From Phycisphaerae bacterium (GTDB lineage: Bacteria; Planctomycetota; Phycisphaerae; UBA1845; Fen-1342), in the NCBI GenBank assembly GCA_028279405.1, contig JANQNU010000061.1:1-64000 (forward strand): a stretch of 64,000 nucleotides of DNA, in the 5' to 3' direction. Below, piece after piece: positions 13,421-57,560 of this stretch. Below the pieces are notes generated by a model. It made no database searches. It had not been told where the DNA came from and worked only from the letters and a program-made list of their open reading frames with translations. How positions within the stretch are numbered: the first letter of the stretch is position 1; each line of letters begins with the position of its first letter. Made by a program: the position numbers and the translations under genes.

Positions 13421-13545
13421 GGGTGGGGCGGGCGTCTCGCCCGCCATTGACCGCTCGCTTGCGCTTGCGGCTCGCATCGACGCCGCTCGGCTCCGTACCG
13501 GCGCACGAGGATCGAACACAACGAGCCCCGAGCGCAAGCGAGGGG
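13421..13545. repeat. Composite REPIN-like repeat cluster
   Basis: Three modules: a palindrome GGCGGGCG-TCT-CGCCCGCC at 13427-13445; a minus-oriented hairpin at 13451-13470 (outer stem CCGC/GCGG, loop GCAA, one GA changed to AA); and a plus-oriented hairpin at 13526-13545 (CCCC/GGGG, loop GCAA). The two hairpins face each other, each preceded on its inner side by CGAG. No gene fits 13223-13561. Confidence 0.82.
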
Positions 13546-13561
13546 ATCTGGAAGCGCACGG

Positions 13562-15301
13562 TCATAGGCCCTGTCGTTCGCGCTCCGAGCTCGTATACCG
13601 TAACGAGAGTTCGAAGCAGGCGCCCGGCCGGTTGTCGATGTAGCGCAGGTCGCCGCCCATGCTCCGTGCCAGCCGTCGACTGAGCGCCAGTCCTAGCCCG
13701 ACTCCGGGAGGGCCGGTAGCGGATTCATGTGCTGATTTGTGGAAGGGCTTGAAGAGTCGCCTTACGGTCTGACGGTCGATGCCGGGGCCGTGGTCTCGAA
13801 TCTGGAGGATGAGTCGCCGGCTGCGGACGATCGGTTCGAGCTCGATCCGTGCTGATCGTCCACCCGCCGCGTACTTGCAGGCATTGTCCACCAGGTTGAG
13901 CAGGATTTGCTCGACCTGGGGCGGATTGGCGCGGACTTGTACGTGGTCGTTCTCGTTGGCGTCAGCCGGACTGACGGAATGTACGGTGACCGTCGCGCCG
14001 CCCTGCATGGCGCGCTCCGTGATTCTCGGCGTCACGCGGTCCAGCACCTCACGGAGCGACACGACCTCGCACGTGACACGTGGCCGCGAGCGCTCGAGTC
14101 GGGCGAACGCGAGCACGTTGTCCACGAGATGCGCCAGACGCCCCGCCTCGCGATGCAAGGTTTGTAAGTACTGAGTACGTTTCGCGTCGCTGTCGAGCAA
14201 CCCGCGGGTCAGGAGTTCCGTATACAACTGAAACGTCGTGAGCGGCGTGCGGAGTTCGTGCGTGACCGCGGAGACGAAAGCGGCCCGTCGCTCGTTGAGC
14301 GTCGCGAATCCGGCAACCGCGATACCGGCCGCTGTAGCGGCGATCGCGAACACACTCCACGCCACGCGCAGCGCCGCCCGCGACGACGGTGCCGGCGCGA
14401 CGAACTCGACGGCGGCGCGCCCCGGCTGCAACACCAACGGCAGCGCCGCGAGCGCATGTGCTTCGGGGCCGCTCTTGCCGACGTCAGGCGGCGCCAACGT
14501 GGCGTCCGGAAACAGATCCGCGATCTCCTCCAGGAGCCAGCGCTCCAGCGACGGGCGGTCGAGCCAGCAGCCTTCGACGCCGAAGTCCGCTTTCACGCGC
14601 GCCAACAGCAACTCGTCCTTGATCCAGCACGGCGTCAACGTCGGATCCATCGTCGTGTCGAGCCGCGTATTGAAGGCAAGCTGTTGTTGCAGGTGGCGGT
14701 TTCGTGCCTGCTCCTCGATCGTGTTCGAGTATTTCTGCAGCGCCGCATTGCCCTTTGTCGAAGGCGCCTCCGGAACGTAACCGCTGAATGTACTGGGAGC
14801 CGTCGTCGGGGCCGCCGACGCAGTCGATGGCGCGTTGCGGATCGCGGCCAGCAGCGCCACCAAATCAGTCGTCTGGCGTAGCGCTGCGAGCTGCGATTCA
14901 GTCGCTCCATCGCCGTCCTGCGCACTTCCAGGACGGTCCGCGGTCGGTACCGGTGCCGCGCTCCAATAGCCGTCAGCATCGACCTGAAAGTAGATCCGAA
15001 CGTACGGCGAACGGCTTCGCGGCAACCGAGCAGCGGATCGGCGTCCGCCCTTGAGACCGGCCGGCGGCGGCTCGGTGAACTCGTCACTGGACCGGGCGCT
15101 CTCGCGCGCGATCAAAGGGGCCAGCGCCGAATCCATCCGCCACAGCGCCAATCGCGTCTTGGCTTCGGCGTCTGCCGATCGGCTGATGTCGAGAGATTCC
15201 GACTCGAGCCGCAGCACGGTCCATGTCAGCCCGATCATCACACTCAGGACAGCGATCAAACCGAGGCCGAAGAGTACCCAGATGTGCCGGGCACGCCTCA
15301 C
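13562..15301 (-). CDS. Sensor histidine kinase, membrane-bound
   Basis: Two-component sensor kinase of 579 residues. Membrane helix 1 lies at about 8-30, an extracytoplasmic sensor region at about 31-308 and helix 2 at about 310-332. The HisKA box VTHELRTPL follows with the phosphorylated His348, then the HATPase domain with the N box LVDNACKYA, DHGPGI and GVGLGLALS. The start is GTG, overlapping the response-regulator stop as GTGA, so the pair is co-translated. The periplasmic region contains Ala/Thr/Ser-rich segments and no sensor fold I recognise. The stimulus is unknown; the neighbouring VIT/vWA protein could be a target but nothing in the sequence shows it. Confidence 0.93.
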   Translation of the reverse strand: MRRARHIWVLFGLGLIAVLSVMIGLTWTVLRLESESLDISRSADAEAKTRLALWRMDSALAPLIARESARSSDEFTEPPPAGLKGGRRSAARLPRSRSPYVRIYFQVDADGYWSAAPVPTADRPGSAQDGDGATESQLAALRQTTDLVALLAAIRNAPSTASAAPTTAPSTFSGYVPEAPSTKGNAALQKYSNTIEEQARNRHLQQQLAFNTRLDTTMDPTLTPCWIKDELLLARVKADFGVEGCWLDRPSLERWLLEEIADLFPDATLAPPDVGKSGPEAHALAALPLVLQPGRAAVEFVAPAPSSRAALRVAWSVFAIAATAAGIAVAGFATLNERRAAFVSAVTHELRTPLTTFQLYTELLTRGLLDSDAKRTQYLQTLHREAGRLAHLVDNVLAFARLERSRPRVTCEVVSLREVLDRVTPRITERAMQGGATVTVHSVSPADANENDHVQVRANPPQVEQILLNLVDNACKYAAGGRSARIELEPIVRSRRLILQIRDHGPGIDRQTVRRLFKPFHKSAHESATGPPGVGLGLALSRRLARSMGGDLRYIDNRPGACFELSLRYTSSERERQGL

Positions 15302-55765: not shown

Positions 55766-57292
55766 ATGAGTTCTCCGGCCATTACCACTACGGTGCGTGT
55801 CCGATACGGCTCGGCTGGTCTCGCAGGGCTGCTGCTGGCAGCGGCAGCCTACGCTGCCGGTCCTACGCTGACCGTGCAGTTCTCGAGCGACGTTCGTTCC
55901 AAGCCGTACACCGGTCGCGTCTATGTCGTACTCTCGTCAGATTACGACGATCCGATCGATGCCGTCAATTGGTGGACGGACGGCCCGATCTATGCCCAGG
56001 ACGTTGTTTCGTGGAAGCCCGAGACGCCGCTGGTGCTGCAACCCGGGGACGGCCTCACGTTCGGCGAGCCGCTCGAACAGCTGCCGGCCGGAACCTACCA
56101 CGCCCAGGCCGTGCTGGATCTCAACCCCCAAACACACAGCGTGATGCGCGGTCCGGGGAACGGCTACTCCCCGCCGGTCCAGTTCGTGCACCATCCGTCA
56201 TCAACGTCGCCGACGCGTGTCGAGCTGGTCGTCAATCACACCTATCCTCACTGGGAACTCAGGGACACGGCGGACCTCAAGTTCGTCAAGAAAAAGAGTT
56301 CATCGTTGACGACGTTCTTCGATCGCAACCATTACATGCGCGCCATCGTTGCGCTGCCTGACGCCTACATGCGCGCTACGGATCGACGTTTTCCGACGGT
56401 GTATGTCATTGGTGGGTTCGGTTCCGACATGCGCACCCGGTATTGGCTCGAGACCCGTGCGCGACTCGAGGGCTTGAACGTGCCCGCGGTCGTGGTCTTC
56501 ATCGACGCCGACTGCCCGTTGGGGCACCACGTATTTGCCGATTCCAAGAACAATGGGCCCGTCGGTACCGCGTTCGTCAAAGAGTTGATTCCGTGGTTAG
56601 AGCAAGAGTTTCGACTGATTCGGGATCCGAATCTCCGGTTGCTCACCGGCCATTCGTCCGGCGGTTGGTCCAGCCTGTGGCTGCAGGTCCGTTATCCGGA
56701 GGCGTTCGGTGGTACGTGGTCCACGTCACCCGACCCGGTCGACTTCAGCGCGTTCCAGACAGTGAACATCTACGAGCCGGGCGCAAACATGTTCTATGAC
56801 GGCAACAAAAAACCGGTTCCGGTGTCGCGACCCTCTTTCCGCCGAGCGATTCTCGCGAAACGGATGTCCGATCTGGAGCGGGTCATCGGGCGCGGCGGAC
56901 AGCTCCAGTCCTTCGAAGCCGTCTTCAGCCCGCGCGGTCCCGACGGCAGACCACGACCGCTCTGGGACCGCGAGACGGGGGCGATCGATTCCGATGTGGC
57001 CGAGACCTGGCGCGAGTACGACATCCGCCACTACCTCGTGGCCAACTGGAAGCAACTCGGTCCCCAACTCCGTGGCAAACTGCACCTCTACTGCGGCGAT
57101 CGCGACACTTTTTACCTCGACCGCGCGTTCGTCAAGCTGAGACAGGCGCTCGAGCAGTTGGAGAGTGACGCATTGGTCGAGATCATTCCGAACGCCGGCC
57201 ACGGGCTTACCCGCGAAACCATGCGAGAAGTCCATCGGGACATGGCCAACCACATCAAACGACACCTCGACCGACGTCGGGAAGGCTCATAA
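55766..57292 (+). CDS. Secreted esterase D/enterochelin-esterase-like hydrolase
   Basis: 508 residues. Signal peptide (LAGLLLAAAAYAAG), a beta-sandwich N-terminal domain (about 30-190) and an alpha/beta-hydrolase domain of the putative-esterase family: VYVIGGFGSD (oxyanion region), nucleophile Ser297 in GHSSGG, acid in CGDRDTFYLD and His in NAGHG. It hydrolyses an unknown ester outside the cytoplasm. GGAG five bases before ATG 55766. Confidence 0.88.
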   Translation: MSSPAITTTVRVRYGSAGLAGLLLAAAAYAAGPTLTVQFSSDVRSKPYTGRVYVVLSSDYDDPIDAVNWWTDGPIYAQDVVSWKPETPLVLQPGDGLTFGEPLEQLPAGTYHAQAVLDLNPQTHSVMRGPGNGYSPPVQFVHHPSSTSPTRVELVVNHTYPHWELRDTADLKFVKKKSSSLTTFFDRNHYMRAIVALPDAYMRATDRRFPTVYVIGGFGSDMRTRYWLETRARLEGLNVPAVVVFIDADCPLGHHVFADSKNNGPVGTAFVKELIPWLEQEFRLIRDPNLRLLTGHSSGGWSSLWLQVRYPEAFGGTWSTSPDPVDFSAFQTVNIYEPGANMFYDGNKKPVPVSRPSFRRAILAKRMSDLERVIGRGGQLQSFEAVFSPRGPDGRPRPLWDRETGAIDSDVAETWREYDIRHYLVANWKQLGPQLRGKLHLYCGDRDTFYLDRAFVKLRQALEQLESDALVEIIPNAGHGLTRETMREVHRDMANHIKRHLDRRREGS

Positions 57293-57376
57293 CGAACTCC
57301 GAAAAGCGCTATGTTGGAGCGTGAGCGTCCTGTGCATGGGTGCCTCAGGGTTCTACCCTCGAGACAGCAACGCTTG

Positions 57377-57560
57377 CCTCGCTTGTGCTCGGAGCTCGTT
57401 GCGTGGTCGAGGGGCGCCAGTGCGAGCCGCGAGCGCAAAGCGAGCGGTCCAGTTCATCTCGCGCACCGTAGCCCCCTCGCTGACGCTCGGGGCTCGTTGG
57501 GTGGCTAGGGGGCGCCAGTGCGAGCCGCGAGCGCAAGCGAGCGGTCAATGGCGGGTTTGG
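57377..57560. repeat. Two REPIN-like doublets in inverted orientation
   Basis: Pair 1: minus, degenerate, loop ACAA (57377-57394) and plus CCGC/GCGG with a five-base loop GCAAA (57427-57447). Pair 2: minus CCCC/GGGG loop GTCA (57473-57492) and plus CCGC/GCGG loop GCAA (57525-57544), then a truncated GGCGGG palindrome. Spacers of both pairs share TGGGTGGCTAGGGGGCGCC-like sequence. The rest of 57293-57708 holds no gene. Confidence 0.84.

What the first reader, a model, noticed from the sequence alone, without database searches (positions are those of the whole stretch)
13421..57560. Hairpins occur as inverted doublets with inward CGAG: a REPIN-like mobile unit
The hairpins come as minus-then-plus pairs (13451/13526, 26118/26167, 33954/33999, 53081/53132, 53251/53326, 57377/57427, 57473/57525, 63073/63127), 25-55 bases apart. 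Each hairpin is preceded directly on its inner side by CGAG (usually ACGAG or GCGAG). A conserved tetranucleotide abutting an imperfect palindrome, in inverted pairs, is the architecture of REPINs moved by RAYT (TnpA-REP) transposases in Pseudomonas and enterobacteria, where the tetranucleotide is GTAG or GGAG. In each pair one arm is of the CCCC type and the other usually of the CCGC or CCCG type. No RAYT gene is in the window, so a mobilising enzyme elsewhere in the genome is predicted.
Basis: partly seen in the sequence, partly recalled or inferred. Interest (0 to 1): 0.82.

Follow-up and report, generated by a model that had tools for sequence, protein, structure and literature searches.

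The report
Hairpin repeats tied to a transposase
The short hairpins scattered between genes here belong to a family of tiny non-coding mobile elements whose matching single-strand DNA transposase gene was found in related bacteria, flanked by the same kind of hairpin, but not in this genome's own assembly.

Summary
In detail: a covariance model finds 19 hairpins of this family in the window at E<=0.001 and 150 in the genome, a capped list. A Y1/HUH transposase with the published motifs of TnpA-Y1 'class 3' has this hairpin within 300 nt in 18 of 33 class-3 loci, against 1 of 84 loci of other Y1 transposases. Two doublets are cleanly present in one species and absent at the orthologous gap of a congener. 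So this is a class-3 REP family with BIME-like mosaics. Corrections: no class-3 gene was found in this genome's assembly; its one detected Y1 gene is of another class, between different, GTGG-tagged hairpins. Tags face inward in 32 of 48 close inverted pairs here; in two relatives the close inverted pairs found all face outward, as do most hairpins beside the transposase genes. The 26167 arm is half a hairpin. The kind is already described; this family, its inward doublets and the presence/absence evidence are the additions.

The parts
13447..13549 (.). Inverted doublet, tags inward: type A hairpin 13451-13470 (-) and type B hairpin 13526-13545 (+), 55-nt spacer
13566..13595 (-). Weaker hairpin of the same family (23.8 bits), overlapping the last codons of the histidine kinase frame 13562-15301 (-)
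13422..13445 (+). GTGG-tagged hairpin (called M2 here) just outside the type A hairpin
25655..25674 (+). Single type B hairpin
26113..26177 (.). Doublet remnant: hairpin 26117-26136 (-) and, from 26167, only the 5' half of a type B hairpin
33950..34022 (.). Inverted doublet, tags inward, 25-nt spacer, between convergent genes
48959..49016 (-). Type A hairpin 48963-48982 and a degenerate second hairpin 48989-49016, same strand
53077..53155 (.). Inverted doublet, tags inward, 31-nt spacer
53247..53349 (.). Inverted doublet (C-/B+), tags inward, 55-nt spacer
57371..57451 (.). Inverted doublet, tags inward; left arm degenerate (23 bits)
57469..57548 (.). Inverted doublet (B-/A+), tags inward, 32-nt spacer; with the preceding doublet it forms an alternating array
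63070..63150 (.). Inverted doublet (B-/A+), tags inward, 33-nt spacer

Best explanation
The CGAG hairpins are the REP sequences of a TnpA-Y1 class-3 transposase system. The protein is inferred to bind the hairpin on single-stranded DNA (likely at the replication fork), to recognise the short 5' tag and the double-mismatch stem, to cut nearby with its tyrosine, and to move or copy hairpin doublets that carry no gene. Repeated insertion, local tandem amplification and recombination then built the alternating A-/B+/C- arrays, joined in places to GTGG-tagged hairpins. Shown: hairpins, tag, compensatory changes, dispersal, class-3 genes flanked by the same hairpin type in relatives, presence/absence of doublets between congeneric species. 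Inferred: the biochemistry, and that an ancestral or unassembled class-3 gene did this in the window's own genome.
For: Model R1, built from this genome's hairpins, hits 18 of the 30 loci fetched with the class-3 query, every one of the 18 with a hit within 300 nt of the gene. After an HMM separation of classes the count is 18 of 33 class-3 loci against 1 of 84 other Y1 loci within 300 nt (Fisher p=2.5e-11), or 19 of 33 against 2 of 84 anywhere in the locus (p=3.7e-11). 54 of 68 hits lie within 300 nt; 11 of 30 loci have the inverted + gene - arrangement and 14 of 30 have hits on both sides. In G007 the gene lies between CGAG-CCGCGAGCGCAAGCGAGTGG hairpins, two on each side; in G016 between one inverted pair. 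The proteins carry NHVH, W(T/A) and Y....Q in most rows, the motifs that PMC6006769 gives for class 3, which it reports from Planctomycetes with flanking hairpins of foot CnGA. Covariation score 0.265 against 0.076 in shuffles, 0 of 500. G016 against G026: doublets of 104 and 116 nt missing at orthologous gaps; at a shared site one stem base pair changed on both sides, CCCG/CGGG to CCCA/TGGG.
Against: No class-3 gene was found in this genome. 14 of 33 class-3 loci show no R1 hit. Two of the five covariation measures (number of pairs with double changes, number of pair types) do not exceed shuffles, and the copies are paralogues, so changes are not independent events. Exact-core copy number follows class-3 presence only weakly over 61 genomes (one-sided Mann-Whitney p=0.03; at least 5 copies in 6 of 23 genomes with a strong match against 4 of 38 without, the latter including this genome). 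Most close inverted pairs here have tags inward, unlike the relatives. Of six G016 sites compared with G026, two are cleanly absent, one is absent within a larger 1.57-kb difference and three are shared; loss in G026 is not excluded. I know of no biochemical test of class 3 (recalled; the paper read asks for one).
Confidence: 0.83

Rival explanations
1. In this genome the CGAG hairpins are passengers. The resident RAYT of the other class (C30) moves GTGG-tagged hairpins, and the CGAG hairpins spread because they became joined to the GTGG hairpin M2.
For: The only Y1 gene detected is flanked by GTGG-CACTGGCGG hairpins. M2 (GTGG-GGCGGGCG-TCT-CGCCCGCC) lies exactly 5 nt from a CGAG hairpin in 24 of 43 copies in the examined set.
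Against: The 43 copies come from a set chosen round CGAG hairpins, so that fraction is biased upward. Only 26 of 144 CGAG hairpins have M2 within 12 nt. M2 is not the hairpin beside the gene. In G016 doublets vary by presence/absence with no M2 in the 104- and 116-nt inserts.
Confidence: 0.2
2. The hairpins are kept for a cellular role, such as transcription end points or mRNA 3'-end protection, and spread only by ordinary duplication and gene conversion.
For: The window's clusters lie in gaps, next to the 3' end of a supported gene in each case except the 26113-26177 remnant, several between convergent genes. Stem covariation suggests the fold is maintained.
Against: Flanking of the transposase gene, clean empty/filled sites, and the same hairpin in unrelated flanks are not expected. 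A secondary role is not excluded.
Confidence: 0.08
3. Chance or base-composition artefact of a GC-rich genome.
For: GC content 63%.
Against: 0 matches in 100 shuffles against 7; 123 exact core copies against 2 of the reversed pattern.
Confidence: 0.01

Closest known systems
TnpA-Y1 class 3 and its flanking hairpins (Quentin et al. 2018, PMC6006769; abstract, passages and two sections seen)
   Same: HuH motif NHVH, W(T/A), Y....Q; reported mainly from Planctomycetes, Acidobacteria and Proteobacteria; several atypical hairpins round the gene, in high copy elsewhere (about 600 in Solibacter usitatus)
   Different: Tag here is ACGAG or GCGAG, not plainly CnGA (the G016/G026 tag TCAGAG does fit); no class-3 gene found in this assembly; inward-tag doublets dominate. 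The paper's hairpin sequences (its Table S1) could not be read here
REPINs of Pseudomonas fluorescens with RAYTs (Bertels and Rainey 2011, PMC3116915; passages seen)
   Same: Inverted doublets with spacer, in extragenic space, with compensatory changes, near RAYT genes
   Different: Different transposase class and tag; tag polarity of the main doublet here is inward (outward in REPINs by recall)
E. coli REP/BIME and TnpA-REP (PMC8266576; passages seen)
   Same: Several related hairpin types combined in inverse orientation; conserved mismatches inside the stem; tag 5' of the hairpin
   Different: GTAG tag and another transposase group
GTAG- and CGTC-tagged palindromes (PMC3733652; passages seen)
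   Same: Short tagged stem-loops in many phyla, Planctomycetes included
   Different: Tag; no word beginning with CGAG occurs in that text

Membership tests
TnpA-Y1 class-3 REP system | Hairpins with a conserved tag at their 5' foot, in many copies | tested here: met
TnpA-Y1 class-3 REP system | Same hairpin type flanks class-3 genes | tested here: met
   in relatives: 18 of 33 class-3 loci against 1 of 84 others within 300 nt
TnpA-Y1 class-3 REP system | Foot of the form CnGA | tested here: inconclusive
   G016, G009, G036 and part of the G005 copies fit (CAGA or CCGA); this genome has ACGAG or GCGAG; how the paper aligns the foot was not seen
TnpA-Y1 class-3 REP system | Class-3 transposase gene in the same genome | tested here: not met
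   The assembly is 95.5% complete in 92 contigs; 11 of the 150 listed hairpins lie within 310 nt of a contig start (8 contigs) against 0.76 expected, the 310 chosen after seeing the list, so loss in a gap is possible
REPIN | Inverted REP doublets in excess | tested here: met
   48 of 70 close neighbours are inverted, p=0.0025
REPIN | Doublet present or absent at orthologous sites | tested here: met
   in the relatives G016/G026 only: 2 clean sites of 6 compared; not tested at this genome's own copies, no same-genus genome being held among the relatives searched
REPIN | Tags at the outer ends of the doublet (recalled) | tested here: not met
   32 of 48 inverted close pairs here have tags inward, 16 outward
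REPIN | Cleavage of single-stranded REP by its transposase | not testable with these tools
   none

The most novel reading that the evidence does not exclude
An orphan class-3 hairpin family has been taken over: in this lineage it reversed its doublet polarity (tags inward) and fused with GTGG-tagged hairpins, so that a transposase of a different class now spreads a two-system mosaic.
Probability: 0.15. Interest if true: 0.7.

Novelty: new member of a known kind. Interest (0 to 1): 0.48.

Why it matters
The paper that defined class-3 TnpA-Y1 proteins calls them possible intermediates between class 1 (which includes the insertion-sequence transposases) and class 2 (the REP transposases), and says that experiments are needed to learn their behaviour. 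The class-3-type doublets here vary by presence/absence between two congeneric species, which makes their mobility directly testable, and the consensus hairpin (conserved GA/GA double mismatch, tetraloop, short tag) gives a defined DNA substrate. The G016 locus is a compact example: one gene between two inverted copies of the hairpin.

Tried and rejected
Rfam: no family in the window at gathering score. GTAG-type RAYT as the cognate enzyme: not supported, since loci of other Y1 genes lack the hairpin (2 of 84 have one anywhere in the locus, 1 within 300 nt). The C30 gene as the flanked enzyme: its flanks are another hairpin. Copy-number correlation across genomes: weak. A 400-kb sample meant for a density estimate (L196-L215) gave 10 model hits at E<=0.1 and no exact core, where the genome's 123 cores would give about 9; it is not representative, so no genome total is offered beyond the capped 150. 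The reversed-sequence control gave 45 raw hits before overlap removal, against 171 after removal, so the raw scan alone is noisy; the filter for tag or stem type left 144. In one search panel D the alignment ends are forced, so only the hairpin part was used. Structure prediction was not run: its stated rule does not list loci from the genome search. By sequence, profile A2 finds solved HUH transposases (best 2f4f, E=9.4e-8, then 2ec2, 2fyx, 2xm3 and, weakly, ISHp608 at 0.027).

Rows dropped or moved: of the other-Y1 loci, 10 were first left out and run later (no hits). L158, L145 and L160 were moved to class 3 by HMM score; L158's hit lies about 1.3 kb from its gene. L142 and L161 are duplicates and were not counted. 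The E<=0.1 cut was applied per call, so the bit threshold differs a little; at 20 bits or more the counts were 16 of 30 against 2 of 78. Alignment A1 used 63 of 106 distinct 30-mers with 4-base loops. A2 used 21 class-3 genes; nine of the 30 loci were left out for stops, splits, weak scores or uncertain ends. Scores are partly circular because 21 of the loci built the profile.
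Full report
Observation. The window carries 19 hairpins matching a model built from this genome at E<=0.001, 16 of them with at least 34 bits. The consensus is CGAG + CCNC-GA-GC-GCAA-GC-GA-GNGG: a 4-bp stem, a conserved double mismatch (GA opposite GA), a 2-bp stem and a tetraloop. In the window plus 60 stretches picked around exact-core hits, 136 of 171 raw hits are preceded by CGAG; reversed sequence gave 45 raw hits before overlap removal. 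After filtering, 144 hairpins remain, of three main stem types: A CCGC/GCGG 61, B CCCC/GGGG 50, C CCCG/CGGG 15, other or mixed 18. Two stem positions change on both sides in 35 cells, against 12 in shuffles; the number of such pairs and of pair types does not exceed shuffles. The exact core occurs 123 times in the genome and its reversed control twice.

Arrangement. Within 130 nt, neighbours are -+ 32, +- 16, same strand 22. The -+ spacers are 25-34 nt (16 pairs), 40-60 nt (15) or 122 nt (1), with recognisable shared sequence within classes; the +- spacers are 23-26 nt (8), 44 nt (3, containing the GTGG hairpin M2) or 99-118 nt (5). Many same-strand copies repeat at about 94 nt. This alternating mosaic resembles E. 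coli BIMEs (as described in PMC8266576, passages). The window's clusters lie in gaps bounded by genes supported by Pfam or codon usage, with two exceptions: the right-hand neighbour of the 25655-26177 group is not established, and the weak hairpin at 13566 overlaps the last codons of the histidine kinase frame.

The transposase. The genome has one Y1 gene by PF01797 and by NF047646. It scores 87 bits as a REP-associated transposase, over the cut-off of 80, but sits between GTGG-CACTGGCGG-type hairpins, not CGAG hairpins. In the same-family genome G007, a different Y1 gene (PF01797 35.5 bits, over the cut-off; NF047646 29.5 bits, under it) is bracketed by CGAG hairpins, two on each side. Its relatives, weak ones included, occur in 31 of 61 genomes searched, not in this one. 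A profile of 21 of them finds here only the C30 gene at E=7.7e-5, then chance matches at E above 1. Most of them carry the class-3 motifs that PMC6006769 lists (abstract, passages, the class-3 section and the REP section seen). HMM scores separate class-3 loci (62 bits or more) from the other Y1 loci (at most 34), though 21 of the class-3 loci built the profile.

Association test. With this genome's hairpin model, 18 of 33 class-3 loci have a hit within 300 nt of the gene, against 1 of 84 other Y1 loci; anywhere in the locus it is 19 of 33 against 2 of 84. Near hits mostly point + to the left and - to the right of the gene in contig orientation (21 of 26 and 22 of 28), so the tags are at the outside. 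Some class-3 loci carry related hairpins with changed inner stems, such as GACC/GGGA. 14 of 33 have no model hit.

Mobility. G016 and G026 share a genus and are 86-93% identical in the longer aligned blocks. Six G016 hairpin sites, known from the capped list, lie in the three stretches compared: two doublets are cleanly missing in G026 (104 nt against 5 nt; 116 nt against 15 nt), one is missing within a larger difference, three are shared. At one shared single hairpin a stem base pair changed on both sides. Direction (gain or loss) is not shown. G016 has a class-3 gene; none was found in G026.

Polarity. All 7 close pairs found in the fetched G016 stretches, and both close inverted pairs in the fetched G007 stretches, have tags outward; no close pair was found in the fetched G026 stretches. 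Here 32 of 48 inverted close pairs have them inward. This is unexplained.

Organism. The window's source is not named by any search. Of 32 relatives of its C30 gene most come from records labelled Planctomycetota or groups within it, so a planctomycete is likely (inference).

Conclusion. Among the papers found, of which four were read in part, the kind is already described; I saw none that describes this hairpin family or a CGAG tag. That statement covers those searches and the open-access library only.

Noticed in passing
window 9285-9482 (+), 20839-21036 (-), 41600-41797 (-): Three reading frames share a C-terminal stretch of about 65 residues (GDxNCDG..VGDINPFV...NGDC...VGDINCFVxLVTG) that looks like paired dockerin-type repeats (label recalled) and may be a common anchoring or sorting tail.
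   Followed up: partly
window 25716-26035, 32110-32185, 33828-33889, 60887-60936, 62900-62961: Other dispersed hairpin families (GGTGCCCCACCCC..., GGTCCCCCATCCC...) occur in the window, some in the same gaps, so several repeat systems coexist.
   Followed up: no
window 5822-8311: A long frame contains arrays with a 63-base period.
   Followed up: no
window 32173-33765: A gene with a phage terminase-like domain (PF17289, 34.8 bits), next to a hairpin doublet; a prophage remnant is possible.
   Followed up: no
L251 8613-8726 and 3174-3276 (G016): A GTAG-type hairpin doublet and another repeat are also present in G016 and absent at the orthologous place in G026.
   Followed up: partly
L111 (G015) 1301-1379 and 1982-2000: A RAYT gene of another class is flanked by hairpins with a GTAG-like start and the core GAGC-GCA-GCGA, the same inner motif under another tag.
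   Followed up: no
loci, e.g. L190, L193, L181: Several Y1 genes lie in very long open frames (about 850-1690 residues); real fusions or simply stop-poor GC-rich frames.
   Followed up: no
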